A stretch of 64,000 nt of DNA from Rhodocollybia butyracea (lineage: Eukaryota; Basidiomycota; Agaricomycetes; Agaricales; Omphalotaceae): positions 124,001 to 188,000 of the forward strand of contig JADNRY010000077.1 of the NCBI GenBank assembly GCA_015501585.1, in the 5' to 3' direction. This document shows positions 9,203 through 44,758 of this stretch, piece by piece (the first letter of the stretch is position 1; each line of letters starts with the position of its first letter). Below the pieces are notes generated by a model. It had not been told where the DNA came from and did not search any database. It worked only from the letters and a program-made list of their open reading frames with translations. The position numbers and the translations under genes were made by a program.

Positions 9203-9547
9203 CTCTTCCCCCCCTCCAAAATGCTCCCTCGTTTATCATTTCCTGTGTCTTGACCTGTATTCCGCGTCCTTGGTACCTATACACACTGTCTGCTATGAAC
9301 GGACGAGCCGCATTCCATTCATAACGGTAAACAATGGACGACTATAAGATATTCGACAGACAAAGATGCACAGACGACCAGACGTTGATTTTTGTCGGCC
9401 CTCCTCAGCTTCTACTATACTTCGAGAAGCGAGAATAACTGCACCACTAGGCCCGATACCCAGCACCCCACCCAGTCCTTGAATAGAACAAATAGAACGA
9501 GCCTTGCTCGTCGCACTAGTCGATAGTGCACTACTCGATGTAGTAGT
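9203..9547 (-). pseudogene. 3' remnant of a Ser/Thr-rich surface protein gene
   Basis: On the minus strand, roughly 9545-9405 encodes a stub ending in RSICSIQGLGGVLGIG followed by a hydrophobic tail. It aligns with the C-terminus of the intact Ser/Thr-rich protein (31782-32455, RSIQGLGAALSVGL) and with the disrupted copy near 13030-13150. The rest of the gene is absent: the module ends at the duplication boundary at about 9548. It is a by-product of the tandem duplication of the P450 module. The stretch 9203-9400 is the P450-A 3' flank and holds nothing else I can name. Confidence 0.6.
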
Positions 9548-10645: not shown

Positions 10646-12797
10646 ATGATCAGTACATCCAGTACCCCTCTTGTAGCTGCAATACTCAGCTTAGCAGCTA
10701 TCCTATGGTATCGAAATGCCCAGCGATATCCTGCGCCACTCCCTCCAGGACCCAAAGCCTATCCTCTGATTGGCAACATTTTCGACTTGCCTCAGTCCCA
10801 ACTTTGGTCAACCTTCAGGAAGTGGGCAGATGCTTACGGTCAGTTCAGAGTCGTCTCCGGAGTTTCAACATTATTTACCACTGAACGACACTTAGGGAGC
10901 ATCGTGCACGTCAGTGCTTTCGGACAACGCATCATCGTGCTCAATGATGCTCAATACGCAACTGAAATGCTGGACAAGAAGAGTCGTATCTACAGCGATC
11001 GACCGAAACTGACTATGGCGGGAAAACTAGTTGGTTGGGATGAAGGTCCAGCATTAAGTCAATTCGGGGAAAGACGGTGGAGTGAGTACCGGCGTCTCCT
11101 CAACCAATTCATGGGCACGCGAAGCAAGATCGAATCCTTTTATGATGTTCTCCAGCAGGAGACTGATGCCTATCTTGAGAATATTTTGAATGATTCTCAA
11201 AATTGGCAAAAGTATACCCGTCGGTATGTGGTTTCTGGCGGAATAAAAGAAAGGTTGAAAACCCGTTGGACTGATCTCCTAGATATGCAGGAGGTATTGT
11301 TCTCATGTTGGCGTATGGATACAAAATATCCGGGAATGAGGATGATACGATGGTAGAGTTGGTCGATGAAGCGATGGATCAGTTCTCTGAAACAGTTGCA
11401 ACAAATGCATTCCTGGTTGACATGTTTCCTATCCGTGAGTCTTAAAGTGCCCTATTATCTGATATTTTCATCAGACACTGTTCTATGTAGTTCAATATGT
11501 CCCTTCATGGGTCCCAGGAGCTGCATGGAAGAAGAAGGCACATCATTACCGGAAGACCTTGCAAGATATGTTGAATATTCCATACAATTGGACCAAATCA
11601 CAGATGGTCAGCTAGCAAAATCGTAAGGTTCGACTGTAGTTATTAACTTTTTTCGAGGCTGCGGGAACTGCTCGCCCTTCATTTGTATACAGCCAGCTAG
11701 ATGCAAACAAGCTTCTCAATCCGGATGAAGAGCATATCATAAGATGGGTTGCAGCTTCTATATACAGTGGTCAGTTCATTCGCATTTGGAAGCTATAACA
11801 TGTGGTTCAATCTATGCTTTTTAGGTGGTGCTGACACGGTGCGTTCCGCGTTTCAATCCAATTTTCCAGCCAATGAATGTTCTTCAGACAGTCGGTGTAA
11901 TTGAGACCTTTTTCTTGGCAATGGTTCTCCAACAATCGGCTCAATCGAAAGCTCAAAAAGAAATCGATGCTGTAGTGGGACACGACAGGTTGCCTACTCT
12001 CCAAGATCGCGAGCAAATGCCATACGTGGAAGCTCTTTTACAAGAGGTAATGCGGGTATACACCATTACACCTCTTGGTAAGTGCCAGAAAACAAGGATT
12101 CAAAATTCAAAAACCCTTCTAATGGTTCAGCTTATAGGACTTCCACATCTAGTATCTGAGAATGATACGCACCATGGTTACTTCATTCCGAAAGGCTCAA
12201 CGATTCTCACAAACAATATGTACGTGCATATATGAATCCTGCTACTAGGACTTGATCTTAAATCCTGTTCTGGGACTTTAGGATGCTCTACAATGACCCA
12301 AAAGTTTATCCTCAACCGGAGAGGTTTTCCCCAGAGCGCTTCTTAGCCTCAGAGGGAAATTCCAAGCAGAAAGATCCACGGGAATACCTATTTGGCTTTG
12401 GACGTCGGTATGAGTTTTTGAATCCTTGTGAGTAGGTAACGTCTTAATTAACGGACGATTCGGCGTTGTATAGTGTGTGCCCAGGTAAGTAAACCAGATC
12501 GTACTATGATTCATCACTCTAAACATTGTTGTAAGGCGTGCATCTTGCGGACGCGTCCGTATGGCTCGCATGTGCAAGTGTACTTGCAGCATTTGATATT
12601 TCGCCTGCTGTGAAGGACGGCACTACTGTGATGCCCTCAGGAAACTTCATGGATGGAATTATCAGGCAAGTAGCCTGCTTTCGCTTCGAATTTTGGGTTG
12701 CTGAGATGTATTTACTTTTCCTAGTCATCCTGAACAGTTTGAGTGTAATATCACCCCCCGAAATGCTTCGGTGTTGGCGTTATTGCAGAAATCTTAA
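10646..12797 (+). CDS. Cytochrome P450, family-1 copy B
   Basis: A close tandem paralogue of P450-A with the same exon layout. Visible parts: N-terminal anchor and PLPPGPKAYPLIGNIF; C-helix WSEYR; the AGGIVLMLAYGYK segment; I-helix GGADTTVGVIE; ExxR in EALLQEVMR; FSPERF; haem loop FGFGRR/VCPG. The cysteine again sits on an 11-nt exon (12474-12484), and the last intron again has a GC donor (12666). The frame is continuous through all exons to TAA at 12795-12797. Its arrangement relative to A (unit length ~3.5-3.6 kb) shows origin by tandem duplication. Function beyond monooxygenase is unknown. Confidence 0.88.
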
Positions 12798-13029
12798 CTT
12801 CTCCCCCTCCAGAATTCTTAATCCGGTCTATTCAACTTCTCCTTTGCTTATCATTTCATGTGTCTTGGTATTTTTGCTGTATTCCACGTCCTTGGTACCT
12901 GTACACGGCTGTCTGTGATGAACAGACGAGCCGTATTCCATTCATAACGGCAGACAATGGACGACCATAAGATTTTTGGCAGACAAAGATACACAAACGA
13001 TCAGACGTTGATTTTTGTTGGCCATCTTA

Positions 13030-13586
13030 TACCATACTTTGAGAAGCGAGAATCACCGCAACACCAAGCCCGATACCCAGCACCCCACTTTTTGAATAGA
13101 ACAGATAGAACGAGCCCCGCTCGTCGCACTAGTCGATAGTGCATTACTCGATGTAGTAGATACTCCGTTTCCGCCCGTTGATGTTGCTATGGTTGATATC
13201 TCTGTTAGAGAGTCCGCAGGGGTGGGTACGGGACTAGGACCGGTGGTGGTAATGCTGCTCGGCCCTGGTGTAATACTGATGAGGCAACCGGTTAGGGCTG
13301 GGACACTACTGAAGATACTTGTAGTTGTGGATGTCGCTAGGAGAGGCGGAGAAGGTAACGTGCGTAACACCTATCGTTGTAGTATGGAACCGAATGAGAT
13401 TGCTGTAGTAAAAGTGATACCGTCGTGGGGAGGACGTATCTTCGGGAGTATGAGATGTAATTTTAGAGTTTGCGATGAAAAAGGTGAAGAAAGAACATGC
13501 TAGCAGGGAAAGTAGAAGTCGGACTGAGCGCCAAAGCTTGGATGAAAAGACAAAAGATATGAATATCACGGAAAGCAGAAGGGTTC
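13030..13586 (-). pseudogene. Ser/Thr-rich surface protein gene split by the foldback element
   Basis: On the minus strand this is the main part of a paralogue of 31782-32455. It holds most of the signal-peptide exon (LLLSVIFISFVF) at 13586-13495, a degenerate intron, the Ser/Thr/Pro-rich segment (STIATSTGGNGVSTTSS) and a C-terminal hydrophobic tail near 13080-13030. The first codons, ATG included, are 17 kb away at 30759-30783 on the other side of the inserted element. The intron donor region has lost bases, and the tail is in another frame. So the gene was already damaged or decayed after insertion. Confidence 0.8.
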
Positions 13587-13813
13587 CACTGGATGCAGGT
13601 TCACGTGATTTGCCATGATATATGTTGAACAAATGTGAAAATCTCACCAAGTGGGATTCACATATTTTCTAATGCTTTCATTGAAAACATTGTAAAATCA
13701 TGTTAAAGCTGAGACATATAGATTTACAATTAAATATGTATAAGGGGCAAATGTCATCCTGAACATATGGTGGAAACATAGTGCTTTCAGTCAATATATA
13801 ATGCTTATATATA

Positions 13814-15115
13814 TGTTATGACCCGGATCTAAATCCTATACACCCAATCTTTTTTCTTCTGTAACCAACTATGAACACTATCATTAATACTTCTACTTAA
13901 CATTTTACATTCATTAGTTATTCAACACCATTTGGGTTAATGCTGCACACATTCTTCCAGAACACCAGAATGATCTTTAACAGTCACTGCACAGTCTGCA
14001 CAGTCATGACATCATTCTAGCTCCACAACTATGATGTCATCTTGCTACTCCACAATCATGATGTCATTCCATTGCTCCGCAGTTATGATATCACATCACT
14101 GCTCCACAGCTATGACATCATTGCATAGCCTCTTTACATCAATGACTCAATATCAGTCATTGCACAGCCAGATATCTGAGTCAACTACGGTTCCGCATAC
14201 ATGACTCAATATTAGTCATTGCACAGCATTACATAGTCAGACTGACTCATCCGCAGTATTTCCGCAGTTATGACTCAAATCTAGTCATTCCGCAGCATTT
14301 CCTAACTAGTACACATTGCACAGTATATAAGTAGTCTAGATTTACCAATGTACGTTAGACGTATTATTTTTCTTAAATCCAAACCCCCACTTGTTTGCTG
14401 TTATCACTTGTGTGAATCACCAGACCAACTCATTGTATCTTGTTGAGCTATCTCCAAGCTACAATACACATTTATACATCTTGTTGAGCTAACTCCAAGT
14501 TGTATCCACTAACATTCACCTGTTGAGCTATCTCCTAGTGAATACTTCTTTAATTGCCACTTGTTGAGCTATCTCCGAGTTGCAACTTCCTATTACTTGT
14601 TGAGCTATCTCCAAGTATTAGACATCACACTCACTATTACTTGTTGAGCTATCTCCGAGTACTAGACACCACACTCACTATTACTTGTTGAGCTATCTCC
14701 GAGTACTAGACACCACACTCACTATTACTTGTTGAGCTATCTCCGAGTACTAGACACCACACTCACTATTACTTGTTGAGCTATCTCCGAGTATTAGACA
14801 CCACACTCACTACTACTTGTTGAGCCATCTCCGAGTATTAGTTCTGATTCATATTACTGCTTGTCGAGCCATCTCCGAGGGTAATCTTATTATTATTTGT
14901 CGAGCTATCTCCAAATAATAACTTCTGTGAGTTTCGTATTACAAACTAGTTACTAACTTTACTTGAGCCTAGTTGTTTGAGTATATATTTTTTGCCTAGC
15001 GGTTTCATCAAACAGAAAGGCTTGCTCTATAATCTCCATTAATTTCTCTTATCATTTTTACTGCCGAGTTACGTACTGTGAAGGTTTGGACGAGACTATT
15101 GATCGAGTCATAACA
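13814..15115 (+). mobile_element. Solo LTR, Ty1/copia-type
   Basis: The 1302 bp unit starts TGTTATGACCC and ends GAGTCATAACA, giving TG...CA ends with a terminal inverted TGTTATGAC/GTCATAACA. It is flanked by the 5-bp duplication ATATA (13809-13813 and 15116-15120). The right arm has a single ATATA at the same place, so the insertion is younger than the arm duplication. A truncated relative lies in both arms (19385-20016 and 25638-26270). A ~500 bp array of hairpin-forming repeats occupies its middle. There is no internal domain, so it is a recombination product. Confidence 0.9.
14433..14932 (+). repeat. Array of 12 hairpin repeats with invariant core inside the LTR
   Basis: Twelve units each carry the core TTGAGCTATCTC or a near variant, at spacings of roughly 37-46 bp. 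Each core is enclosed by an inverted repeat that differs between units: TTGTATCTTG/CAAGCTACAA, ATACATCTTG/CAAGTTGTAT, ATTCAC/GTGAAT, CTATTACTTG/CAAGTATTAG, and finally TTATTATTTG/CAAATAATAA (perfect). Core variants keep an inner GAG/CTC pair and change only the four bases between them (CTAT, CTAA, CCAT). Some units are further related as ~46 bp tandem copies (14637-14810). Confidence 0.85.
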
Positions 15116-17930
15116 ATATACCTCATTCCTGGTGCTACATACAAAAGGCATACAGAAACATTATTCAAAACATCTGCTATAATTTTGCTGAACTTATGAG
15201 AAGCCGCTTTTTGGTTTCTTCTTTATAAGGAGCAAGAATTATGAAATATGTATGCTGAGCAAACATATATAAATAATGCATATATGTTTTCTATTAATTG
15301 TAAGATGTATGGAAAAGTTATGCAAAATGTCTGCTATAAATTTTGCTGAACTTATGAGAAGTAGATTTTTGATTTTTTACATATAATGTGCCATAGTTGT
15401 GAGATATATATGTTTAGCAAATGTAGATATCTAGCTCCTATATGTCATTCATTGCTTGTAATATATATAAGCAACATGCAAAAAAGTAATGGTATATATA
15501 TGCTATAATTTTGCTCAAGTTATACTCCAGTTTTTTACCTATAATGAGCCATAATCATGCAAACACATCTTCATTATTAATTGCAGAACATGGAGAATAT
15601 ATGCTGGAATTACACTAAAGATAAATAATGTTTAACATAATTTTATGAATCTTCAGTAATGCAATGCTGATACTACAGAATGCTGGTTTATGTAAGTTAT
15701 GCTATGAATAATAAAACTATAATGAGTATATGAAAAGTGAATGTCCCTGTTTATCCATTGCAGATGTTGCAGGTTTTAGTAAAGATATATAGAAAGTATG
15801 AGGTATGTCATTAGCATAATATGAATGTCATGATTACTGACATACAGTGAATAAATGTATGAACTATTGTACCTATTTGGTGCCTATAAGTTTCCAAAGG
15901 CATCAAGATGATTTTGATGGATTATGACAACTGCACTTTCAGGTATATTGATCATTATTTCATGACATTTGAATGAACAGACAGAAAACATACAAAGAGC
16001 AAATGTGGATGTTATGAGAAGTTTGAATAGCTAATGATGTCAAGATTGTTCACCTGGGGTCTAATATTGGAGAAGTAAGACTTATGGAAACAAGAGGGAT
16101 ATATCATGGAGAATATTTAAAGGCATATCAAAATAAAAAGAAAGAGCATGTATAGAAAATGGGAAATGAATGTGAAAAGTTTGAGAAGATAAATAGAAAT
16201 AGGATGGTTATAAGATTGAAGTGAAACAAGAATATTATGTTGAAGTAAAATATAGTCAAGACTACAAAGAGGGTACAGATAGTCTATGGATAGGCTACAC
16301 AAAGGGCACAGATAGGCAATGCTGAGGCTACAAATAGGCTACAGCCTATAGGCAACACTAAGGCTATGAGTAGGGTATGGATAGGCTACATGAAGGGTAC
16401 AGATAGGCTACAAATAGAGTGCAAGTAGGCAACATCAGGGGTACAGATCATAGGCCATGGAAGGGATACAGATAGGCTACTCTGAGGCTACAGATAGGTT
16501 ACATCAAGGGCACAGGTAGGCTACAGATAGGCTACAGATAGATTACAAGTAGGCAACACCAGGGCTACACATAAGCTATGGATGGGTGACAGATAGGCTA
16601 CTCAAAGGCAACAAATATGCAACAGATAGGTGACACCAAGGCTATAAATAGACTATAGATAGGCTACAGATAGGTTACAAGTAGGCATCACCAAGGCTAC
16701 AAATAGGCTATAGATGGGCTACAGATAGATTACAAGTAGGCAAGACCAGGGGTACATTGAAGTGTGCCATGGATGGGCTACAGGAAAGCTACTCCAAGGC
16801 CACAAATAAGCAATAAATAGGTTACACCAAGGCTACAAATAGACTATAGATAGGCTACAGATAGATTACAAGGAGGCAACACCAAGGGTACAAATAGTCT
16901 ATGGAAGGTCTACAGATAGGCTACTCTAAGGCTACAAATAGGCTGCAGGTAGACTACAGATAGATTACAAGGAGGCAACACCAAAGCTACAAATAGGCTA
17001 TAGACAGGCTCTGGCAGATAGATTCCAAGTAGGCAACACCAGGGCTACACATAATCTATGGATAGGTTTCAGATAGGCTACTCCAAGGCTTCAAATATGC
17101 AACAGACAGGTGACACCAAGGCTACAAATAGACTATAGATAGGCAAGGCTATGAGTAGGGTATAAATAGGCTACATGAAGGGTACAGATAGGCTACTCTG
17201 AGGCTACAAATATGTTACAGATAGACTACAGATTGATTACCCCCAGGCAATACCAGGGCAACGACTAGACTATAGATAGGCTGCAGATAGATTACAAGTG
17301 GGCAACACCAGGGGTACAAATAGGCTATGGATGGTCTACAGATAGGCTACTTGGAGGTAACAAATAAGCAACAGATAAGTTACACCAAGGCTATGGATGG
17401 TCTACAGATAGCCAATTGTAGGTGTGACTACTATGAAACTTTGTAGTGTGCCGCAGGTGCTAGAAAATTCTTTTGTACATGTAGCACTGGCAACTCAATT
17501 TTTTTTTTTGTAAGGTCCCTCAAATATCTGTGAACAGGTGTGACCTTTCAGACAACCTGGGTCCCTTGTGACCCATGACTTACGAACTGCCTGAAATGGT
17601 ACAGTAGATTACCAGTAGGCAATGCAGATAGATTACAACCAGGCACAAATAGATTACATATAGGCAACACCAGGGGTACAAATAGGCTGTGGATGGGATA
17701 CAGATAGGCTACAACAAGGCTACAGATGGACTATAGATAGACCGCAGATAGATTACAAGTAGGCAGCACCAGGGGTGCAGATAGGGTATGGAGGGGCTAC
17801 AGAGAGGCTACTGATAAAGGGTTCGAAGACTACAAATAGATTACAAGCAGGAAACACAAGGAGGATGGTCTACAAATAGGCAACAGATAGGTTACACCAA
17901 GGCTACAGATAGGCTACAGATAGGCTACTA

Positions 17931-18262
17931 GGGATGGACACGAGTCCAGATCCTGGTAAACCCGGACCTGCTGCACAGGTACCTGCACCCAAAAAAACAC
18001 AACCTGTGACCTGACCCGGACCCGTGGGAAACGGGTATCTGGATCTGCTGGATCCGGGCCATGCAGGTCAACCTGCAGGTATTTGTAGGTATTTGTACTT
18101 AAAATATACTTTATAGGTCTGAAAATCCCCAAGGGCTGACCTGTGACCTGACCCGCACCTGTGGGAACAGGTACCTGGATCAGCCGGATCCAGGTCAGGC
18201 GGGTATTTCCACAGGTTAAACCAAGTGGGTCACCTGTAAAGAGCTGGACTTGTGTCCATCTT
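17931..18262 (+). mobile_element. MITE-like element with ~19-bp inverted termini (left arm)
   Basis: The ends GATGGACACGAGTCCAG (17933) and CTGGACTTGTGTCCATC (ending 18260) are inverted repeats with one mismatch in the core. TA dinucleotides lie on either side, as for Tc1/mariner-type MITEs. The interior is rich in short palindromes around GGATCC and CCTG/CAGG. A shorter relative, missing its left end, is at 18858-18960. No coding capacity. Confidence 0.6.
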
Positions 18263-19201
18263 TATAGGCTACAGATAGATTAAAAGTAGGCAACACCCGG
18301 GGCACAGATAGGCTATGGATGGGCTACAGATATGCTACTCGGAGGCTACAAATAGGCTACAGATAGATTATGTCAAGGGTACAGCTAGGCTACAGATAGA
18401 CTACAGATAGATTACAAACTGCTGCAACAAGCAGGCAACACAAAGGCTACAGATAGGTTACAAGTAGGCAACTCCAAGGCTATAAATATGCTATAGATAG
18501 GCTACAGATGAATTACAAGTAGGCAACACCAAAGGTACATATAGGCTATGCATGGTCTACAGATATGCTACTCCAAGGTGACAAATAGGCAACAAATAGG
18601 TTGCACCAAGGCTAAAAATATACTACAGATAGGCTACAGATAGATTACAAGTAGGCAACACCAGGGGCACAGATAGGCTATGGATGGGCTACAGATAGGC
18701 TACTCCAAGGCTACAAATAGGCTACAGATAGGCTACAGATAGGTTACATCAAGGGTACAGCTAGGCTACAGATAGACTACAGATAGATTACAAGCAGGCA
18801 ACACAAAAGCTACAGATAGGTTACAAGTAGGCAACATCAGGGCTACAAATAGGCTACATGGGAATGGGTACCTGGATCCTGTGGATCCAGGTCAGACAGG
18901 CATTCCCATGTGTTGAATCCACGGGTCACCTGTTAGGACCTGGTCTCATGTCCATCCTTAGCTATAGATAGGCTACAGATAGGCTACTGTGAGGTTACAA
19001 ATAGACAACAGATTGGTCACATCAAGGGTACAGACAGGCTACAGATAGATTACAAGCAGGCAACACCAAGGCTACAAATAGGCTATAGATAGGCTACAGA
19101 TAGATTACAAGTAGGCAACACCAGGGCCCAGGGGTACAGACAGGCTACTCTGAGGCCACAAATAGGCAACAGATAGGTTACAAATAGACTATAGAGCACT
19201 C

Positions 19202-20016
19202 ATGGCTGCACATACATCCATGAACCCATTGTTCCAACCTAGTGACAGACAACCCTTCACCTGCCACAACTGTGGCAAGCCAGGGGATATGGCAAGGAAG
19301 TGGCCAAGGGCAGTGGTATGGAAGGGAAAGGGCAAAAACAGGGCTAACAGAACCAGAACTTGCACAGCATTCTGCAGTCAGGCTGACTGATCCACAGCAT
19401 TTCCGCAGTTATGACTCAAAACTATAGTACATATTAAACAGTATATAAGAAGGCTTGATTTACCAATGTAAGGTAGAAGTATTATTTTTTTGAATCCAAC
19501 CCCCACTTGTTTGCTGTTATCACTTGTGTGAATCACCAGACCAACTCATTGTATCTTGTTGAGCTATCTCCAAGTTGTATCTACTAATATTTACCTGTTG
19601 AGCTATCTCCTAGTGAATACCTCTTTAATTACCACTTGTTGAGCTATCTCCAAGTTGTAACTTCCTATTACTTGTTGAGCTATCTCTGAGTATTAGACAC
19701 CACACTCACTACTACTTGTTGAGCTATCTCCGAGTACTAGACACCACACACACTACTACTTGTTGAGCCATCTCCGAGTATTAGTTCTGATCCATATTAC
19801 TACTTATTAAGCTATTTCTCAAGGTAACCATATTATTATTTGTTGAGCTATCTCCAAATAATAACTTCTGTGATTACAAACTAGTTACTGACTGTCCTTG
19901 AGCCTAGTTGTTTGAGTATATATTCTTTGCCTAGTGGTTTTAACAAACAGAAAGGCTTGCTCTATAGTCTCTATTAATTTATCATTGTTACCACTGAGTT
20001 ATGTACTGTGAGATAC
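19202..20016 (+). mobile_element. Copia gag scrap plus 5'-truncated LTR (left arm)
   Basis: 19202-19390 encodes a decayed gag zinc knuckle: CHNCGKPGDMARKW keeps the first two cysteines and GxxG of CX2CX4HX4C but has D and W at the His and last Cys positions. From about 19385 the sequence becomes the LTR family of 13814-15115, lacking its first ~420 bp, and carries a shorter hairpin array (19548-19865). The fragment ends near 20016. It is a broken retroelement, not a gene. Confidence 0.7.
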
Positions 20017-20086
20017 AGTCAGTGGTGATTATGGAGAGGCGGAGGCGTTACAAGACTATAGATATGGACAGGCTACAGATAGGCTA

Positions 20087-20342
20087 CTCTATGATTATGA
20101 CCATACACTTGCAGGGGTCAAGGTGTTATGCATTGTTTTTCTCAAGCATTATGCTCAGAGGCCGCCATTATGCATTAACCATAGCGCTATATGTGTAAAT
20201 GAATAAGAGGGCCAAAGGCCTGCCAGCAAGATTTGCAATGTTTCAATGCTTGGAGCCTCCTGTTATGTGTTATGCATTGCAAAATCCCCATGCTTGGGGG
20301 TCCTGTTACACATTATGGGAGCATCCGGTCATAATTATACAG
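20087..20342 (+). mobile_element. Second MITE-like element (left arm; copy at about 25313-25568)
   Basis: A 256 bp insertion in the minisatellite with 16-bp inverted ends, CTCTATGATTATGACC and the complement of CTGTATAATTATGACC (two mismatches). The interrupted repeat sequence GGCTACTCTGAGG reappears at the right edge, which allows either a TA or a TACTCT duplication. The interior has CATTATGC/GCATAATG motifs. No coding capacity. The mirror copy is in the right arm. Confidence 0.55.
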
Positions 20343-21031
20343 TACTCTGAGCATACAAATAGGCTACAGATAGGTTACATCAAGGGTACAGATAGGCTAT
20401 AGATAGTCTAGTAGGCAAAACCAGGGATACAAATAGGCTATGAATGGTCTGCAGATAGGCTACAGATTGGTCACATCAAGGGTACAGACAGGCTACAGAT
20501 AGATTACAAGTAGGCAACACTAGGGGTACAGATAGGCTACTCCGAGGCTACAAATAGGCAACAGATAGGTTACACCAAGGTTACAAATAGACTATAGATA
20601 TGGATGGGCTACAGATAGGCCACTCTGAGGCTACAAATAGGCTACAGATAGGTTACATTAAGGGTACAGATAGGCTATAGATATGCTACAGATGGATGGC
20701 AAGTAGGCAACACCAGGGGTACAAATTAAAGATTTCCACAACTCCAGGATGCCGGCAGGTAATTGCAAGTATATCAAATGGGCTATGGATGGCCTAAAGA
20801 TAACCTACTCTGAGGATACAAATAGGCTACAGATATGTTATATCAAGCATCCAGATAGGCTATAGGTAGGCTACAGATAGATTACAAGTAGGCAACGCCC
20901 AGGATACAAATAGGCTATAGATAGGCTACAGGTAGGCTACTCCAAGGCTACAAATAAGCTACAGATTGGTTACATTAAGAGTACAAATTAGTGATGTGCG
21001 GGGCTGGGCTGGGCCTCAAGCCCACAGGCCA

Positions 21032-21881
21032 CCTGACAGTAGGGCCCAAGCCCAAAGCCCAAGCCCAGGCAATGAAGGTGCAATAATTTTACTTGTTCTG
21101 TGAACTTTTTGGCCCTCTAATATCCATTAATCCCAGTACATATTCAACTACCTTCACCCACATGCATCCTTAATGACTGTATATCTAAGTACTAGAATAC
21201 CCCAAGATTGTGTAACTTTGTGTCAGATGATAGACATGCCTCCACATTTCCAGAGCTTTAGTGAAAAAATTGTGAACAGTTTGGGGTTATGAGCAGTTGT
21301 AGATATGGTAGTAATGAGACTCTGACACTTAGTATGGTTCTATAGTCATGCTAAAGGTAAAATTCTCGATATCATTGGACAAATAATGACTGGGAAAAGC
21401 CCAGGCTTTGGCCCCAGGCTTCAGACCTTGGGGATTCAAGCCTGAGCCCAAGGCCCATTAAGGCCTGCTATAACCCGTGCTCCAACACCGCCCTGGACCC
21501 TCCCTCCCTCCACATGATATTTTAGTTATGTTAGTTTCTTATATGGTAATCCATGAGCAACATATGAGTCATCTTTTCTTGCTTCAGGCTGACCTAGACA
21601 AGCTCACTATTTGAGAACATTGCTTGTTCACTGCTGCAGTATCGAAGATACTACTAAGTCAGCTGGATAGACAAGCAAAAGAGCTGGTGTCACACATTTC
21701 AGGCTTGAGTGTGATGGAGAATGCCATATGAGGTGTGGGAAACTCGTTCCGTATATAGTAGGAAGAGGAGGGGAGGGGGGTATATTGACCTTAAGACCAA
21801 AATACAAGGTGATATATAATAAAAAAATTTCGCACACCCCTTGGTGTAACCTACCTGTTACACATTTGTAGCCTTGGAGTA
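21032..21881. other. Centre of the foldback, left half: GC-rich block and unique sequence
   Basis: From 21032 the two arms stop matching. The GC-rich block (repeats of GCCCAAGCCC up to ~21070 and again ~21390-21480) appears to be a diverged repeat related to the sequence at 24560-24640, where the right side keeps a longer version. 21490-21830 is unique, AT-biased and without a convincing gene. The last ~50 bp are minisatellite in right-arm orientation, ending GAGTA at 21877-21881. Confidence 0.55.
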
Positions 21882-23606
21882 TGTTGGTATGAGCCGAGAC
21901 GCCGTACATAGTTTACAGTCTGTAGTCACATGATACATCACTTGCTTGTCTTAATACCACGTCGTCGTTTATCGTTCGCGTCCTTTTGTGGATATCCCGG
22001 GTCTAAAGTTCAACAGGTTATGGGCAAGTGTTAGCCACTGCCTTGCTGCTCAATTATTACCTAGGTCTTTTCCTATTGCCTGCTGTCACAATCGGCATCC
22101 TCTTTCTATTGCCTGCTGCCACAATCAGCTACATCTATCCCAATCCTCTCTCATCCATATTCTCATTTCATCATGGTCAAACCATCTGACATAGTTAAAC
22201 TCACGGGCACTAATTACTGGACTTGGAAGAACCAGGCCCAAGCTTTATTGCTTGCAGGAGGGTACTGGAACGCTGTTGACCCATCAGTACCGGTTCCAAC
22301 AGGTGTTGTACAAGCTAGAGCTTGGACAGGTGACAATCTGAAGGCTTATGGGCTACTATACCTCATGTTAAGCCCTGATGTCTGTATCAAGGTGGACAAT
22401 GTAGGTGTTTCAAACAGCGGTCGTCTCCTTTGGGCACAGCTTGACGCCTTCTATACACGGTCTGATCCTGCTACCCGTTCTTCACTCATGGCCCAATTCC
22501 AATCCATCACTCATGACATCATGAAGCCAGCCGATGCCTTCCTCCGGCAGGTGCTCAGTATTGAACGTCAGCTTTATGCTATTGCTGTCTCCCTTCCTGC
22601 GTCCTTTGTCCAGGATAAGGTCTTGGGCGGTCTCTCTGCTACTTATGGTCCCATTATCACGGTTTTACAGAATGAGTCACCTCAGAAATCGGTCGCCGAT
22701 ATGATTACTGCGATTAACGCCTGGGAACTTAGTGACCTCCAGAAAGGAGACTCCTTGATCAAGGTTGTGCGTTCTGGGGGTGATTGGGTGCCCGCTCCGC
22801 CTTCTCCCAATCATGGGGATGAGAGTGACGGAGCGCACTATACTTCTCAATCCCGTCCTCGACAGTCATCACGGTTCAACTCTCCATCCAACTCATTGAC
22901 TCGGCCCTCACAGGAATTTGATTGGACTAACACCAAGCGACAGACTGATGTCTGCTATCGGTGGGGTCACTCTGGTCACTTTGCTCAATACTGCATATCA
23001 GTAATGCCTGATGATGTTTGCCAAGGCATTATCCGTAATCGTTCGAAGCAAGTTGCGCTTTTGGCTGAACCTGCCTCCTTAGATCAGCACAAAGCTCTTG
23101 CGGTTATGGATCTACCATCCACCATCTATCCGGACACCATGTCTTCTGAGGTGCGTGAAGCATGGCTCAGCACTGTTACTGTATCAGAAGCCCATGTTGC
23201 AACCCTCACTCCTGATTCATCTGCGCCTTCATCTCCCACTCATGCGGCAATGGGTTTTACTCAAGGTAGCGCTAAAAAGAAGAAGATAAAGAAGAAAGGG
23301 AAGTCATTGTTGGGATTTCCAGTGTCACACATTCGCTTGAGGACTTGAATTTTGTGGATGCTGTGGATGCCGCTACATTGAGTGAGATTGAAGCAGATGA
23401 ATACGAAGGTTTTTAGTTGATTATTCTTTTTCATTTTTCCTGTTTTCGGTCATCATATGATTCAACTCATTGGACATTTTACCCTCTTCATGAATATAGT
23501 TTCTGGGGGTGTCTCGACTCAGGGGGTGTGTTGGTATGAGCCGAGACGCTGTACATAGTTTACAGTCCGTAGTCACATGATACATCACTTGCTTGTCTTA
23601 ATACCA
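21882..23606 (+). mobile_element. Small LTR-gag-LTR retroelement (TR-GAG-like)
   Basis: Two 78-bp direct repeats (21882-21959 and 23529-23606; two differences) start TGTTGGTATGAG and end TTAATACCA. They flank a 1.57 kb interior with a single gag frame and no pol. A purine-rich tract (CTCAGGGGGTG) precedes the right repeat. GAGTA lies directly before the left repeat and, one base off, after the right one. Joining the flanks restores a normal minisatellite unit (CCTTGGAGTAGCC), so the insertion site is clear. It resembles the gag-only short-LTR elements described from plants; mobilisation would need a helper. Confidence 0.8.
22173..23348 (+). CDS. Copia-type gag protein of the mini-element
   Basis: A 391-codon frame starting MVKPSDIVKLTGTNYWTWK, the Ty1/copia gag opening (LxGxNYxxWK). 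It is followed by the helical capsid-like region (LLWAQLDAFYTRSD, SLMAQFQSI, ILxNLS-like VLGGLSATYGPII) and a zinc-knuckle remnant, CYRWGHSGHFAQYC, in which the second cysteine is tryptophan. A lysine-rich stretch (KKKKIKKKGK) follows. Near that A-rich run (~23270-23300) the frame seems to slip: another frame stays open to about 23416 with acidic coding-like sequence (THSLEDLNFVDAVDAATL), which suggests the ancestral protein was ~20 residues longer. Confidence 0.75.
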   Translation: MVKPSDIVKLTGTNYWTWKNQAQALLLAGGYWNAVDPSVPVPTGVVQARAWTGDNLKAYGLLYLMLSPDVCIKVDNVGVSNSGRLLWAQLDAFYTRSDPATRSSLMAQFQSITHDIMKPADAFLRQVLSIERQLYAIAVSLPASFVQDKVLGGLSATYGPIITVLQNESPQKSVADMITAINAWELSDLQKGDSLIKVVRSGGDWVPAPPSPNHGDESDGAHYTSQSRPRQSSRFNSPSNSLTRPSQEFDWTNTKRQTDVCYRWGHSGHFAQYCISVMPDDVCQGIIRNRSKQVALLAEPASLDQHKALAVMDLPSTIYPDTMSSEVREAWLSTVTVSEAHVATLTPDSSAPSSPTHAAMGFTQGSAKKKKIKKKGKSLLGFPVSHIRLRT

Positions 23607-24354
23607 TGAGTAGCCTATCTGTAGACCATCCATAGCCTATTTGTAGTCTTGGTGCTGCCTCCTTGTAATCTATCTATAGTCTATCTGTAGCTTATCTGTA
23701 CCGTTGATGTAGCCTATATTCTGCAGCCCCAGAGTGACCATCCATAGTCTATTTGTACCCTTGGTGTTACCCCGTAATCTATCTGTAGCCTATCTATACT
23801 CTATTTCTAGCCTTGGCGTAGCCTATCTACCGCATATTTGTAGCCTTGGAGTAGCTTACCTGTATCCCTTCCATAGCCTATCTGTACCCCTGGTGTTGCC
23901 TACTTGTAATCTATCTGCAGCCTATCTGTAGCCTTCATGTAGCCTATCCATACCCTACTTGTAGCCTTAGTGTTGGCTATCTGTAGCCTTGGAGTAGTCT
24001 ATTTGTAACCTAGGCATTGCCTATGTTAGGTTCAGTTTAGCGCCCTGGTAATGCCTCCTTGTAATCTATCCTGTAGCCTATCTATAGTCTATTTGTAGCC
24101 TTGGTGTTGCCTACTTGTATCATGGAACTAGACAATTATATCCAGGAATGGGCATTTACATCCACCATCAGAGTTAGATGCCCCTTCCCTCACATTATGG
24201 TGAATTTTTTTCATAATGCATATTACATGTGTTGCTTTCAACATTAGAGAGCTTCTTTCTGAACAAAATGATCATATATGTCTTGGTCAGGCTTGAAAAA
24301 CATGCCAGTGTACAAATTGAGACATACACAGGATTTGATCTACTAGGCCCAGAT

Positions 24355-24504
24355 TCAGTTATGTAGCAGATGGAAACTGGGGATGAAGGAGATAGAAGTC
24401 ATGTGTGCAACAGGTGCATACATATCAAAATAGTTGACTGCAGGAACCTGAGAAAACCCTTGAGCAACAAGATGAGCCTTTACCACATTTTCCGCTACAT
24501 CTTT
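24355..24504 (-). pseudogene. Fragment of Ty1/copia reverse transcriptase
   Basis: The minus strand encodes KAHLVAQGFSQVPAVNYFDM followed by YAPVAHMTSI. This matches the highly conserved start of the copia reverse transcriptase domain (K-A-R-L-V-A-Q-G-F-S-Q...Y-F-x-x-[FY]-A-P-V-A-x-M-x-S-I). The frame stops at 24355-24357. Downstream to about 24140 the sequence looks like further decayed pol (FKPDQDIYDHFVQK). It is a fossil inside the minisatellite, only on the right of the centre. Confidence 0.75.
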
Positions 24505-25637
24505 TCAGCCTTGAAAATATATTCAAGACTACAAAGAGGGTACAGATAGTCAATGAATAGACTATAGATAGCTAGGGCTTGGGCCTTACTTTCAGGAGGC
24601 CCTGGCCCGCTAAAGCCTGGCCTGGCCTGTGGGCTTGAGGCCCAGCCCAGCCCCGCACATCACTAATTTGTACTCTTAATGTAACCAATCTGTAGCTTAT
24701 TTGTAGCCTTGGAGTAGCCTACCTGTAGCCTATCTATAGCCTATTTGTATCCTGGGCGTTGCCTACTTGTAATCTATCTGTAGCCTACCTATAGCCTATC
24801 TGGATGCTTGATATAACATATCTGTAGCCTATTTGTATCCTCAGAGTAGGTTATCTTTAGGCCATCCATAGCCCATTTGATATACTTGCAATTACCTGCC
24901 GGCATCCTGGAGTTGTGGAAATCTTTAATTTGTACCCCTGGTGTTGCCTACTTGCCATCCATCTGTAGCATATCTATAGCCTATCTGTACCCTTAATGTA
25001 ACCTATCTGTAGCCTATTTGTAGCCTCAGAGTGGCCTATCTGTAGCCCATCCATATCTATAGTCTATTTGTAACCTTGGTGTAACCTATCTGTTGCCTAT
25101 TTGTAGCCTCGGAGTAGCCTATCTGTACCCCTAGTGTTGCCTACTTGTAATCTATCTGTAGCCTGTCTGTACCCTTGATGTGACCAATCTGTAGCCTATC
25201 TGCAGACCATTCATAGCCTATTTGTATCCCTGGTTTTGCCTACTAGACTATCTATAGCCTATCTGTACCCTTGATGTAACCTATCTGTAGCCTATTTGTA
25301 TGCTCAGAGTACTGTATAATTATGACCGGATGCTCCCATAATGTGTAACAGGACCCCCAAGCATGGGGATTTTGCAATGCATAACACATAACAGGAGGCT
25401 CCAAGCATTGAAACATTGCAAATCTTGCTGGCAGGCCTTTGGCCCTCTTATTCATTTACACATATAGCGCTATGGTTAATGCATAATGGCGGCCTCTGAG
25501 CATAATGCTTGAGAAAAACAATGCATAACACCTTGACCCCTGCAAGTGTATGGTCATAATCATAGAGTAGCCTATCTGTAGCCTGTCCATATCTATAGTC
25601 TTGTAACGCCTCCGCCTCTCCATAATCACCACTGACT

Positions 25638-26452
25638 GTATCTCACAGTACATAACTCAGTGGTAACAATGATAAATTAATAGAGACTATAGAGCAAGCC
25701 TTTCTGTTTGTTAAAACCACTAGGCAAAGAATATATACTCAAACAACTAGGCTCAAGGACAGTCAGTAACTAGTTTGTAATCACAGAAGTTATTATTTGG
25801 AGATAGCTCAACAAATAATAATATGGTTACCTTGAGAAATAGCTTAATAAGTAGTAATATGGATCAGAACTAATACTCGGAGATGGCTCAACAAGTAGTA
25901 GTGTGTGTGGTGTCTAGTACTCGGAGATAGCTCAACAAGTAGTAGTGAGTGTGGTGTCTAATACTCAGAGATAGCTCAACAAGTAATAGGAAGTTACAAC
26001 TTGGAGATAGCTCAACAAGTGGTAATTAAAGAGGTATTCACTAGGAGATAGCTCAACAGGTAAATATTAGTAGATACAACTTGGAGATAGCTCAACAAGA
26101 TACAATGAGTTGGTCTGGTGATTCACACAAGTGATAACAGCAAACAAGTGGGGGTTGGATTCAAAAAAATAATACTTCTACCTTACATTGGTAAATCAAG
26201 CCTTCTTATATACTGTTTAATATGTACTATAGTTTTGAGTCATAACTGCGGAAATGCTGTGGATCAGTCAGCCTGACTGCAGAATGCTGTGCAAGTTCTG
26301 GTTCTGTTAGCCCTGTTTTTGCCCTTTCCCTTCCATACCACTGCCCTTGGCCACTTCCTTGCCATATCCCCTGGCTTGCCACAGTTGTGGCAGGTGAAGG
26401 GTTGTCTGTCACTAGGTTGGAACAATGGGTTCATGGATGTATGTGCAGCCAT
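25638..26452 (-). mobile_element. Copia gag scrap plus truncated LTR (right arm)
   Basis: Mirror copy of 19202-20016. The gag zinc-knuckle remnant is on the minus strand at 26452-26264, followed by the LTR piece and its hairpin array (about 26105-25790). It matches the left copy wherever compared. Confidence 0.7.
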
Positions 26453-27391
26453 GAGTGCTCTATAGTCTATTTGTAACCTATCTGTTGCCTATTTGTGGCC
26501 TCAGAGTAGCCTGTCTGTACCCCTGGGCCCTGGTGTTGCCTACTTGTAATCTATCTGTAGCCTATCTATAGCCTATTTGTAGCCTTGGTGTTGCCTGCTT
26601 GTAATCTATCTGTAGCCTGTCTGTACCCTTGATGTGACCAATCTGTTGTCTATTTGTAACCTCACAGTAGCCTATCTGTAGCCTATCTATAGCTAAGGAT
26701 GGACATGAGACCAGGTCCTAACAGGTGACCCGTGGATTCAACACATGGAATGCCTGTCTGACCTGGATCCACAGGATCCAGGTACCCATTCCCATGTAGC
26801 CTATTTGTAGCCCTGATGTTGCCTACTTGTAACCTATCTGTAGCTTTTGTGTTGCCTGCTTGTAATCTATCTGTAGTCTATCTGTAGCCTAGCTGTACCC
26901 TTGATGTAACCTATCTGTAGCCTATCTGTAGCCTATTTGTAGCCTTGGAGTAGCCTATCTGTAGCCCATCCATAGCCTATCTGTGCCCTGGTGTTGCCTA
27001 CTTGTAATCTATCTGTAGCCTATCTGTAGTATATTTTTAGCCTTGGTGCAACCTATTTGTTGCCTATTTGTCACCTTGGAGTAGCATATCTGTAGACCAT
27101 GCATAGCCTATATGTACCTTTGGTGTTGCCTACTTGTAATTCATCTGTAGCCTATCTATAGCATATTTATAGCCTTGGAGTTGCCTACTTGTAACCTATC
27201 TGTAGCCTTTGTGTTGCCTGCTTGTTGCAGCAGTTTGTAATCTATCTGTAGTCTATCTGTAGCCTAGCTGTACCCTTGACATAATCTATCTGTAGCCTAT
27301 TTGTAGCCTCCGAGTAGCATATCTGTAGCCCATCCATAGCCTATCTGTGCCCCGGGTGTTGCCTACTTTTAATCTATCTGTAGCCTATAAA

Positions 27392-27719
27392 GATGGACAC
27401 AAGTCCAGCTCTTTACAGGTGACCCACTTGGTTTAACCTGTGGAAATACCCGCCTGACCTGGATCCGGCTGATCCAGGTACCTGTTCCCACAGGTGCGGG
27501 TCAGGTCACAGGTCAGCCCTTGGGGATTTTCAGACCTATAAAGTATATTTTAAGTACAAATACCTACAAATACCTGCAGGTTGACCTGCATGGCCCGGAT
27601 CCAGCAGATCCAGATACCCGTTTCCCACGGGTCCGGGTCAGGTCACAGGTTGTGTTTTTTTGGGTGCAGGTACCTGTGCAGCAGGTCCGGGTTTACCAGG
27701 ATCTGGACTCGTGTCCATC
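27392..27719 (-). mobile_element. MITE-like element, right-arm copy
   Basis: Exact counterpart of 17933-18260 in the opposite arm, with the same inverted ends (GATGGACACAAGTCCAG at 27392, GTGTCCATC ending 27719). Its truncated relative is at about 26697-26800. Both were in the arm before it was duplicated. Confidence 0.6.
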
Positions 27720-30700
27720 CCTAGTAGCCTATCTGTAGCCTATCTGTAGCCTTGGTGTAACCTATCTGTTGCCTATTTGTAGACCATCCTCCTTGTGTTT
27801 CCTGCTTGTAATCTATTTGTAGTCTTCGAACCCTTTATCAGTAGCCTCTCTGTAGCCCCTCCATACCCTATCTGCACCCCTGGTGCTGCCTACTTGTAAT
27901 CTATCTGCGGTCTATCTATAGTCCATCTGTAGCCTTGTTGTAGCCTATCTGTATCCCATCCACAGCCTATTTGTACCCCTGGTGTTGCCTATATGTAATC
28001 TATTTGTGCCTGGTTGTAATCTATCTGCATTGCCTACTGGTAATCTACTGTACCATTTCAGGCAGTTCGTAAGTCATGGGTCACAAGGGACCCAGGTTGT
28101 CTGAAAGGTCACACCTGTTCACAGATATTTGAGGGACCTTACAAAAAAAAAAATTGAGTTGCCAGTGCTACATGTACAAAAGAATTTTCTAGCACCTGCG
28201 GCACACTACAAAGTTTCATAGTAGTCACACCTACAATTGGCTATCTGTAGACCATCCATAGCCTTGGTGTAACTTATCTGTTGCTTATTTGTTACCTCCA
28301 AGTAGCCTATCTGTAGACCATCCATAGCCTATTTGTACCCCTGGTGTTGCCCACTTGTAATCTATCTGCAGCCTATCTATAGTCTAGTCGTTGCCCTGGT
28401 ATTGCCTGGGGGTAATCAATCTGTAGTCTATCTGTAACATATTTGTAGCCTCAGAGTAGCCTATCTGTACCCTTCATGTAGCCTATTTATACCCTACTCA
28501 TAGCCTTGCCTATCTATAGTCTATTTGTAGCCTTGGTGTCACCTGTCTGTTGCATATTTGAAGCCTTGGAGTAGCCTATCTGAAACCTATCCATAGATTA
28601 TGTGTAGCCCTGGTGTTGCCTACTTGGAATCTATCTGCCAGAGCCTGTCTATAGCCTATTTGTAGCTTTGGTGTTGCCTCCTTGTAATCTATCTGTAGTC
28701 TACCTGCAGCCTATTTGTAGCCTTAGAGTAGCCTATCTGTAGACCTTCCATAGACTATTTGTACCCTTGGTGTTGCCTCCTTGTAATCTATCTGTAGCCT
28801 ATCTATAGTCTATTTGTAGCCTTGGTGTAACCTATTTATTGCTTATTTGTGGCCTTGGAGTAGCTTTCCTGTAGCCCATCCATGGCACACTTCAATGTAC
28901 CCCTGGTCTTGCCTACTTGTAATCTATCTGTAGCCCATCTATAGCCTATTTGTAGCCTTGGTGATGCCTACTTGTAACCTATCTGTAGCCTATCTATAGT
29001 CTATTTATAGCCTTGGTGTCACCTATCTGTTGCATATTTGTTGCCTTTGAGTAGCCTATCTGTCACCCATCCATAGCTTATGTGTAGCCCTGGTGTTGCC
29101 TACTTGTAATCTATCTGTAGCCTATCTGTAGCCTACCTGTGCCCTTGATGTAACCTATCTGTAGCCTCAGAGTAGCCTATCTGTATCCCTTCCATGGCCT
29201 ATGATCTGTACCCCTGATGTTGCCTACTTGCACTCTATTTGTAGCCTATCTGTACCCTTCATGTAGCCTATCCATACCCTACTCATAGCCTTAGTGTTGC
29301 CTATAGGCTGTAGCCTATTTGTAGCCTCAGCATTGCCTATCTGTGCCCTTTGTGTAGCCTATCCATAGACTATCTGTACCCTCTTTGTAGTCTTGACTAT
29401 ATTTTACTTCAACATAATATTCTTGTTTCACTTCAATCTTATAACCATCCTATTTCTATTTATCTTCTCAAACTTTTCACATTCATTTCCCATTTTCTAT
29501 ACATGCTCTTTCTTTTTATTTTGATATGCCTTTAAATATTCTCCATGATATATCCCTCTTGTTTCCATAAGTCTTACTTCTCCAATATTAGACCCCAGGT
29601 GAACAATCTTGACATCATTAGCTATTCAAACTTCTCATAACATCCACATTTGCTCTTTGTATGTTTTCTGTCTGTTCATTCAAATGTCATGAAATAATGA
29701 TCAATATACCTGAAAGTGCAGTTGTCATAATCCATCAAAATCATCTTGATGCCTTTGGAAACTTATAGGCACCAAATAGGTACAATAGTTCATACATTTA
29801 TTCACTGTATGTCAGTAATCATGACATTCATATTATGCTAATGACATACCTCATACTTTCTATATATCTTTACTAAAACCTGCAACATCTGCAATGGATA
29901 AACAGGGACATTCACTTTTCATATACTCATTATAGTTTTATTATTCATAGCATAACTTACATAAACCAGCATTCTGTAGTATCAGCATTGCATTACTGAA
30001 GATTCATAAAATTATGTTAAACATTATTTATCTTTAGTGTAATTCCAGCATATATTCTCCATGTTCTGCAATTAATAATGAAGATGTGTTTGCATGATTA
30101 TGGCTCATTATAGGTAAAAAACTGGAGTATAACTTGAGCAAAATTATAGCATATATATACCATTACTTTTTTGCATGTTGCTTATATATATTACAAGCAA
30201 TGAATGACATATAGGAGCTAGATATCTACATTTGCTAAACATATATATCTCACAACTATGGCACATTATATGTAAAAAATCAAAAATCTACTTCTCATAA
30301 GTTCAGCAAAATTTATAGCAGACATTTTGCATAACTTTTCCATACATCTTACAATTAATAGAAAACATATATGCATTATTTATATATGTTTGCTCAGCAT
30401 ACATATTTCATAATTCTTGCTCCTTATAAAGAAGAAACCAAAAAGCGGCTTCTCATAAGTTCAGCAAAATTATAGCAGATGTTTTGAATAATGTTTCTGT
30501 ATGCCTTTTGTATGTAGCACCAGGAATGAGGTATATATAAGCATTATATATTGACTGAAAGCACTATGTTTCCACCATATGTTCAGGATGACATTTGCCC
30601 CTTATACATATTTAATTGTAAATCTATATGTCTCAGCTTTAACGTGATTTTACAATGTTTTCAATGAAAGCATTAGAAAATATGTGAATCCCACTTGGTG

Positions 30701-30758
30701 AGATTTTCACATTTGTTCAACATATATCATGGCAAATCACGTGAACCTGCATCCAGTG

Positions 30759-30783
30759 TTCTAGGTTTTGAAACAAAGAACAT
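30759..30783 (-). pseudogene. Start codon and first codons of the split Ser/Thr-rich gene
   Basis: The minus strand reads ATG at 30783-30781, then codons for MFFVSKP up to the element boundary. If the element and one TTC are removed, a 34-base stretch spanning the junction aligns without any gap to the intact paralogue's first codons (32455 downwards; MFSIQGPRAILL). This identifies the piece as the severed 5' end of the gene at 13030-13586. The upstream region (30800-31000) also resembles the 5' flank of the intact gene near 32570-32650. Confidence 0.78.
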
Positions 30784-44400: not shown

Positions 44401-44758
44401 ATCCAACAATAAGGTTAGTGGGCTGGATTAAGCACCTCGAGTAGCTAGAGCAACGGCAACAAACACTGGGCATCTAAGTCTGACAAAATTGTACTTGTTA
44501 TCGTCGGTCTTGTAAATTATGGCTCAAGCGATTGTTTTTGGCTTGTTTCGCCCTTTGCTCCTCATCGTGACATTGCGCGTAGCCATTGGAGTTGGACAGA
44601 AGGTACACTCATAGTGTGGCTGGAAAAGCTCACAGTGTGTACATATACCCAAGGACGCAGAATACAGGAAGCAGAATACAGGAAGACTATCGAGGCAAAG
44701 CGAAGGAGAAGGAAGTCGAATAAATTGGATTATGAGTTTTGAAAGAGGGGGGAAGAAA

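What the first reader, a model, noticed from the sequence alone, without database searches (positions are those of the whole stretch)
13584..30761. A 17.2 kb foldback element with CACTA-like ends inserted in a gene
Seen directly: the ends CACTGGATGCAGG... are exact inverted copies at 13587 and 30758; TTC lies on both sides; the arms are 7.4 and 6.1 kb and nearly identical. Known: CACTA/EnSpm elements have CACT(A/G) ends and 3-bp duplications. Inference: this is a non-autonomous foldback relative whose inverted repeat has swallowed whole arms of minisatellite and nested elements. Inverted repeats this long and this uniform are rarely described for fungi.
Basis: partly seen in the sequence, partly recalled or inferred. 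Interest (0 to 1): 0.9.

Follow-up and report, generated by a model that had tools for sequence, protein, structure and literature searches.

The report
Giant palindrome transposon with self-matching arms
A 17 kb piece of mobile DNA in a woodland mushroom is built almost entirely of two mirror-image arms; it belongs to a family of such elements in that genome, and within a copy one arm seems to be copied onto the other, so that even a foreign insertion can end up in both.

Summary
In detail: a 17,172 bp element (13587-30758), exact CACTGGATGCAGG inverted ends, TTC on both sides, arms 99.97% identical over 5.9 kb, and a paralogous empty site. The host is almost certainly Rhodocollybia butyracea. 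It belongs to a family: 74 ends, 15 convergent pairs of 7.2-36.7 kb, nine with identical 3-bp flanks. Of 11 copies read, all but C1316 have mirror arms of 1.7-12.6 kb. No listed EnSpm, Plavaka or KDZ transposase match lies inside a pair, and no autonomous partner was found. Ends and duplications fit CACTA/EnSpm; membership stays unproven without the transposase.

New is how the arms evolve: in concert within each copy. WIN and its closest relative differ at 45 sites shared by both arms against 1 unshared; a nested 1.1 kb transposon with its CTCAC duplication sits in both arms of copy C788, while 17 other copies of that site are empty; C1067 has a 1.3 kb tract without arm differences between stretches that differ. 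Arm-to-arm gene conversion explains this best. In the window a relative of that nested transposon is in the left arm only. Read-level proof against assembly collapse is missing.

The parts
13584..13586 (.). target-site duplication TTC, left
   Evidence: empty site in paralog C343
13587..13813 (+). left terminal inverted repeat, 227 bp, starts CACTGGATGCAGG
13814..15115 (+). nested 1,302 bp DNA element (TGTTATGAC.. inverted ends, 5-bp duplication ATATA at 13809-13813 and 15116-15120), left arm only; same family as the insertion found in both arms of copy C788
15116..21031 (+). left arm proper, 99.97% identical inverted copy of 24623-30536
   Evidence: 1 substitution and 3 indel events over about 6.1 kb with the terminal repeat included and the nested element left out
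16262..20974 (+). degenerate 11-bp minisatellite (TACAGATAGGC and multiples) with interspersed sequence; direct in this arm, mirrored in the other
21032..24622 (.). loop between the arms; 23607-24622 continues the arm sequence on the right side only
22065..23348 (+). copia-type gag ORF, 427 codons (PF14223), nested retroelement remnant
24623..30536 (-). right arm
24680..29390 (-). mirrored 11-bp minisatellite
30532..30758 (-). right terminal inverted repeat
30759..30761 (.). target-site duplication TTC, right

Best explanation
It is one copy of a multi-copy, apparently non-autonomous cut-and-paste DNA transposon family with CACTA/EnSpm-type ends, mobilised in trans by a transposase that was not found. 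The body is a giant foldback: two arms of one 'master' arm sequence, joined at different inner points in different copies, with arrays of short tandem repeats and nested elements. Shown: the ends, the 3-bp duplications, the empty site, the copy number, the mirror arms, and the concerted change of the two arms inside a copy as assembled. Inferred: the cause is arm-to-arm gene conversion (recombinational repair of one arm with the inverted arm as template), which spreads point changes and even nested insertions of 1.1 kb (C788) and perhaps 4.9 kb (the copia-carrying branch) to both arms. The window copy shows the state before transfer for its 1.3 kb nested insertion. Whether conversion happens in place or during repair of excision gaps is open.
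For: Ends and duplications: 74 ends; 15 convergent pairs; 9 of 15 with identical 3-bp flanks: ttc, ata, tat, tgg, ata, tac, tag, aca, tga. Arms. Concert: in trees the two arms are sisters, support 76-100, in 11 of 11 copies compared within one contig, C938 and C1316 left out; by distance the partner arm is nearest for 20 of 22 ends of those copies (10 of 10 in subfamily B; 10 of 12 in A after I set aside three pairs, six ends, that I had matched across contigs partly by identity), both misses being C1067. WIN versus C1018: 45 gap-free sites where both WIN arms differ from both C1018 arms, 1 site in one arm only. C788: nested element with CTCAC duplication in both arms; the full junction was found only in the two C788 arms (40 of 247 candidates scored, these two ranked first); the site is empty at 17 other places (21 of 21 candidates scored), among them both arms of C136, C1094, C552 and C1227. 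C1067: 0 arm differences in 1031-2306 against 13 and 4 on either side, while the same stretch differs from C938 at 10 sites; largest-gap p = 0.00017, one of nine copies looked at. Copia at one master-arm site: in both ends of the pairs C938-left/C401 and C335/C72, in neither arm of WIN and C1018 (40 of 370 candidates scored).
Against: No transposase with these ends (the Plavaka search scored 123 of 237 candidates and the list was cut). Six of 15 pairs lack a clean duplication; C938 joins ends that match two different partners, C587 and C1227 have inverted flanks: recombination or misassembly. The species paper (PMC8480192, passages) names Illumina and PacBio data and Velvet, AllPathsLG or Falcon with finisherSC and Quiver for its set, not per species; noisy long-read assemblies can merge near-identical arms. 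C1018 begins at a contig start and its arms differ by indels only until near their inner end; C14 and C788 arms also differ by indels only, as read errors would. C1067 arms are not nearest to each other overall. C335b and C156 share a flank (99.1%) but their arms are not sisters.
Confidence: 0.7

Rival explanations
1. The arms are made identical by faulty gap repair after excision: a broken end invades the wrong terminal repeat of the sister copy, copies the same arm again, and the two new strands are joined, so palindromes are rebuilt at each abortive repair.
For: Arm lengths differ between copies; one side of the loop continues the master arm while the other stops (C910, C1067, C992, WIN); C1067 is two unequal arm copies joined with almost nothing between. 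Abortive gap repair and template switching are discussed for Galileo (PMC4168063, one passage).
Against: The 1.3 kb interior patch without differences in C1067 fits conversion in place better; truncated loops could be ordinary deletions of an ancestral palindrome.
Confidence: 0.17
2. The near-identity within copies is an assembly artefact: reads of the two arms were merged and written out twice.
For: C587 and C1227 carry inverted flanks, C938 joins ends with different partners; C1018 arms differ by indels only over nearly all of their length, C14 and C788 arms over all of it.
Against: Merging works by similarity, so it should also have merged different copies that are 99% alike, yet those stay distinct. 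Arm-specific differences survive in the same assembly: 1.3 kb in WIN, 17 substitutions in C1067 and 7 in C992, about 10 kb in C552 (from coordinates). Nine pairs have matching 3-bp flanks.
Confidence: 0.11
3. No homogenisation: each copy is so young that its arms had no time to diverge.
For: Six of nine copies compared have at most 1 substitution between their arms.
Against: Copies differ from each other by private changes carried by both arms: 9, 9, 3, 2, 12 against 1, 0, 0, 0, 3 unshared in subfamily B. One ever-changing master would be needed; in the tree of subfamily B the copies sit on private stems. In subfamily A the counts are small and two copies (WIN, C1018) have no shared-private site in the outer 1.1 kb.
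Confidence: 0.04
4. The element is not CACTA/EnSpm but another superfamily with short duplications (PlavakaB, or an undescribed CACTA-like lineage).
For: 138 Plavaka matches in the genome; PlavakaB makes 2-3 bp duplications (PMC12730594, passages).
Against: PlavakaB ends are CATCA..TGATG and PlavakaA ends TGT..ACA with 2 bp; Kyakuja makes 7 and Zisupton 8 bp (same passages; Dileera not seen); CAC..GTG with 3 bp is what that paper takes as consistent with EnSpm.
Confidence: 0.2

Closest known systems
Galileo (P superfamily) foldback-like elements of Drosophila (PMC3573991, passages)
   Same: Many non-autonomous copies made almost entirely of long, internally repetitive inverted arms; arm growth by recruitment of interior sequence; chimeric copies without matching target duplications.
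   Different: 7-bp target duplications, P-type transposase known, arms 18 bp to about 1.26 kb. Here 3-bp duplications, CACTG ends, arms 1.7 to 12.6 kb, whole nested transposons carried in both arms. The main text of that paper holds neither 'gene conversion' nor 'homogen'.
Tetris foldback transposon of Drosophila virilis (PMC4079207, passages)
   Same: Foldback with tandem repeats inside the arms; grouping of repeats within two of three complete elements was taken as possible homogenisation.
   Different: That concerns single 220-bp repeat units, not whole arms of many kilobases.
CACTA/EnSpm transposons of fungi (PMC12730594, passages)
   Same: CAC..GTG ends, 3-bp target duplications.
   Different: No EnSpm transposase match inside; foldback body; no EnSpm relative with the same ends found here.
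Primate Y-chromosome palindromes (from memory, no call)
   Same: Inverted arms kept nearly identical by arm-to-arm gene conversion.
   Different: Those are fixed chromosomal structures; these are mobile and present in many independent copies, which gives replicates.

Membership tests
CACTA/EnSpm | CAC..GTG termini (CACTA or CACTG) | tested here: met
CACTA/EnSpm | 3-bp target-site duplication | tested here: met
   9 of 15 pairs; the other six (C910, C938, C579, C1316, C1227, C587) are chimeric, have inverted flanks or are unclear
CACTA/EnSpm | EnSpm-type DDE transposase (PF02992) in the element | tested here: not met
   0 of 15 pair intervals hold any of the 22 PF02992 matches; at best a non-autonomous member
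CACTA/EnSpm | an autonomous relative with the same ends | tested here: inconclusive
   for 6 of the 22 PF02992 matches no CACTGGATGC lies within 10 kb, save the end of copy C14 itself beside one of them; the list of that search was cut, so the other 16 could not be judged
CACTA/EnSpm | subterminal repeats bound by transposase | not testable with these tools
   arms of subfamily A carry 11-bp arrays; binding unknown
Foldback elements (structural class) | long inverted arms, internally repetitive, making up most of the element | tested here: met
   exceptions: C1316 has short arms, and in C14 and C579 the loop is longer than the arms
Plavaka | CATCA..TGATG or TGT..ACA ends; PF18759 transposase | tested here: not met
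   ends differ (PMC12730594, passages); 0 of 15 intervals hold a listed PF18759 match, 123 of 237 candidates scored
KDZ (Kyakuja, Dileera, Zisupton) | long duplications (7 bp Kyakuja, 8 bp Zisupton); PF18758 transposase | tested here: not met
   3-bp duplications; 0 of 15 intervals hold a match (148 of 148 candidates scored)
Galileo/P | 7-bp duplication and P-type transposase | tested here: not met
   3-bp duplications; P transposase not searched

The most novel reading that the evidence does not exclude
A family of giant mobile palindromes that repair themselves: arm-to-arm conversion keeps each copy a foldback, spreads new insertions to the mirror position, and so lets a CACTA-type element grow to tens of kilobases by swallowing other transposons twice over. 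Many copies in one genome would be replicate natural experiments on palindrome gene conversion.
Probability: 0.5. Interest if true: 0.75.

Novelty: new variant of a known kind. Interest (0 to 1): 0.62.

Why it matters
Long palindromes are expected to be unstable, and arm-to-arm conversion has been studied mainly in sex-chromosome palindromes (from memory). A mobile family with many independent copies, arms of different lengths, ordered in time by nested insertions and still anchored by target duplications, would let tract length, direction and rate of conversion be measured in a fungus. It also shows how inverted-arm elements can become very large, and why such loci break genome assemblies. 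I saw no report of such arms in fungi in the listings of four full-text searches of the held library; I read passages of five of the listed papers and a sixth from another search, and most subscription papers are not held.

Tried and rejected
Autonomous partner: matches to PF02992, PF18759 and PF18758 were placed by eye against the ends; none listed lies inside a pair (Plavaka 123 of 237 candidates scored). KDZ matches lie about 8-16.5 kb inward of single ends on C1216, C1272 and C1338, but Kyakuja and Zisupton make 7-8 bp duplications and the second ends are unknown; left open. A shorter end pattern (15-mer, 1 mismatch) gave 79 places against 6 for the backwards control; the 10-mer gave 370 places against 58 for the control, and only the first contigs, up to C472, were listed.

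Coding content: of ten ORFs scanned with Pfam, one, the WIN loop ORF, has a family (copia gag); its named relatives are mostly Mycena proteins, 39-58% identical. Other ORFs in C938 and C579 look like copia, gypsy and hAT pieces by reading only, not by a search. I saw no sign that an element encodes its own mobility, but not every ORF was scanned.

Inverted flanks of C1227, C587 and C1316 were first read as inverted duplications spreading beyond the ends. C1316 sits in a palindromic minisatellite (my reading); C587 starts near a contig edge; for C1227 (99.7% over 1 kb; search) I cannot decide between misassembly and a real duplication, so none is used as evidence of mechanism, except that both arms of C1227 are counted among the empty sites. 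C938 as assembled was dropped from the arm counts because its two ends match two different partners (C401, C245); as assembled its arms have 2 unshared differences in the outer 1.1 kb and 50 substitutions overall. C1316 was dropped because most of its right arm is missing. One paper search for concerted arms returned nothing.
Full report
WHAT IS THERE. In the window it spans 13587-30758, begins and ends with exact inverted copies of CACTGGATGCAGG..., and has TTC on both sides. The outer 227 bp are 99.6% identical; 15116-21031 and 24623-30536 are 99.97% identical over 5,916 bp. Between the arms lies a 3.6 kb loop with a copia-type gag ORF at 22065-23348 (PF14223, E 1.3e-12). The left arm is 1.3 kb longer because of a nested 1,302 bp element (13814-15115) with TGTTATGAC inverted ends and a 5-bp duplication ATATA. 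The insertion is shown by a paralogous empty site, C343:4365-4949, 80% identical and contiguous across the join. The claim 'inserted in a gene' is not shown: gaps of 2, 3 and 11 bp near the join argue against conserved coding sequence.

SPECIES. A stretch of a window ORF (61448-61990, minus, 180 aa) is 100% identical over 97% of its length to BDP27DRAFT_1365136 of Rhodocollybia butyracea, an agaric of the Omphalotaceae. A genome paper lists strain AH 40177 (PMC8480192, passages).

THE FAMILY. The first 26 bases occur at 74 places within 3 mismatches, 31 forward and 43 reverse, against 0 for the backwards control. From these coordinates I paired 15 convergent ends 7.2 to 36.7 kb apart (C14, C136, C552, C579, C587, C677, C788, C910, C938, C992, C1067, C1094, C1127 = the window, C1227, C1316). 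Nine of the 15 have identical 3-bp flanks; about 0.23 would be expected at 1 in 64 each (my arithmetic). Eleven copies were read, one of them (C1018) lacking its first 16 bases at a contig start. Ten have inverted arms of 1.7 to 12.6 kb with main blocks 98.7 to 100% identical; C1316 keeps only 0.6 and 0.3 kb stretches at 95-97%. Subfamily A (seven copies plus C1316) shares one master arm with an 11-bp minisatellite; subfamily B (C992, C14, C788, C136, C552 in the trees) has other arms but related ends; C677 is a third type, at most 85% alike to the others over 226 bp.

THE ARMS CHANGE TOGETHER. In trees of the outer 1.1 or 1.5 kb, the two arms of a copy are sisters in all 11 copies compared within one contig (WIN, C1067, C910, C587, C579, C1018; C992, C14, C788, C136, C552; support 76-100). 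C938 and C1316 were left out, for the reasons in Tried and rejected. By distance the partner is nearest for 20 of 22 ends; both misses are C1067. The same call gives 16 of 18 in subfamily A when three end pairs matched across contigs are included; I set these aside because identity helped me to find them. Seven of the 11 copies have matching 3-bp flanks (WIN, C1067, C992, C14, C788, C136, C552). WIN and C1018 share the loop's left part at 98%, an arm breakpoint and a 102-bp arm deletion, so they probably descend from one parent. Over the arms, at columns without gaps, 45 sites separate both WIN arms from both C1018 arms and 1 site is in one arm only. C1018 is the weaker witness, since it lies at a contig start and its arms differ by indels only until their inner end.

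INSERTIONS COPIED TO THE MIRROR SITE. Copy C788 has a tac duplication at its own ends. In each of its arms, 3.28 kb from the tip, sits a 1,128 bp nested element of the same family as the one in the window, with the same CTCAC duplication in both arms. The full junction was found only at these two places (40 of 247 candidates scored, these two ranked first, the rest listed matching the nested element alone). The empty site occurs at 17 other places (21 of 21 candidates scored), 16 of them 2.2-3.2 kb and one 13.5 kb inward of a family end; C992 and C805 match it with a deletion. So one insertion event, seen in C788 alone, is present in both its arms. In the window the same kind of insertion is in one arm only. 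A second case is weaker: a copia element of 4.86 kb at master position 5198 is in both ends of the pairs C938-left/C401 and C335/C72, in neither arm of WIN and C1018, and in neither of two arm copies on C618, whose second end is off the contig (40 of 370 candidates scored). Among these no copy has it in one arm only. Its long terminal repeats differ by about 3% while the arms of C938 differ by 0.6%, but C938 is chimeric.

A CONVERSION TRACT. C1067 (duplication ata) has 17 substitutions between its arms: 13 in the first 1,031 bp, none in the next 1.28 kb, 4 in the last 286 bp. The middle stretch differs from C938 at 10 sites and carries 4 private changes shared by both arms, so it is not simply slow. 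A gap this long has p = 0.00017 under uniform placement; nine copies were looked at, so about 0.0015 after correction. This mosaic is what arm-to-arm gene conversion leaves.

HOW IT PROBABLY WORKS. Shown, in the assembly: ends, duplications, copy number, empty site, foldback body, concert. Inferred: mobilisation in trans by a CACTA/EnSpm-type transposase (CAC..GTG ends and 3-bp duplications; PMC12730594, passages). None of the listed PF02992, PF18759 or PF18758 matches lies inside any of the 15 pairs (the Plavaka search scored 123 of 237 candidates). Inferred too: recombination between the inverted arms, repairing one from the other, keeps the copy a palindrome. Faulty gap repair after excision is the main rival and may act as well, since loops continue the arm on one side only.

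WHAT COULD BE WRONG. Assembly. The species paper names Illumina and PacBio data with Velvet, AllPathsLG or Falcon, finisherSC and Quiver for its set of genomes, not for each. C587 and C1227 have inverted flanks, C938 joins ends with different partners, and single ends are common (44 of the 74 are outside the 15 pairs): the palindromes probably trouble the assembler. C14 and C788, two good witnesses otherwise, have arms that differ by indels only. But merging acts by similarity and should equally have merged different copies at 99% identity, and arm differences are kept in WIN, C1067, C992 and C552. I put artefact as the whole cause of the concert at about 0.1.

NOVELTY. Foldback elements with long, repetitive arms are known (Galileo, Tetris; passages). 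Here the scale, the CACTA-type ends in a mushroom, and above all the per-copy concerted arms with nested transposons at mirrored sites are unlike what I saw in the listings of six searches. I call it a new variant of a known kind.

Noticed in passing
C1227:14615-15614 and 33415-34414 (L070, L071): Flanks of this copy are inverted copies of each other, 99.7% over at least 1 kb, on a 223 kb contig; misassembly of two alleles or a real inverted duplication.
   Followed up: partly
C335:168673 (L036) and C156:15725 (L032): Same flanking sequence (99.1%) but arms that are not sisters in the tree; could be alleles of one insertion with separately converted arms.
   Followed up: no
C14 copy, L056:3153-7115: The loop holds a row of plus-strand ORFs without Pfam family (six scanned), the first 92% identical over 83% to a protein named from Rhodocollybia butyracea; possibly a captured gene.
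   Followed up: partly
C1216:177170, C1272:109608-111525, C1338:101699-102477: KDZ transposase fragments lie about 8-16.5 kb inward of single family ends on three contigs; by a rough estimate of mine, not a call, more than chance, but transposons may cluster.
   Followed up: no
C552:4134-40806: 36.7 kb copy; the same arm site lies 13.5 kb from the left end but 3.1 kb from the right, so about 10 kb was probably inserted in one arm only.
   Followed up: no
C788:30068-30834: A Plavaka transposase match starts 13 bp beyond the element's end; the copy may have inserted into a Plavaka gene.
   Followed up: no
window 6764-13162 and 44712-51038: Repeats of 2.2-2.8 kb, 78-88% identical, that look like a cytochrome P450 cluster (label from reading the ORFs).
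   Followed up: no
window 56123-57265, minus: ORF of 380 codons that looks like a NACHT domain protein (label from memory, not searched).
   Followed up: no
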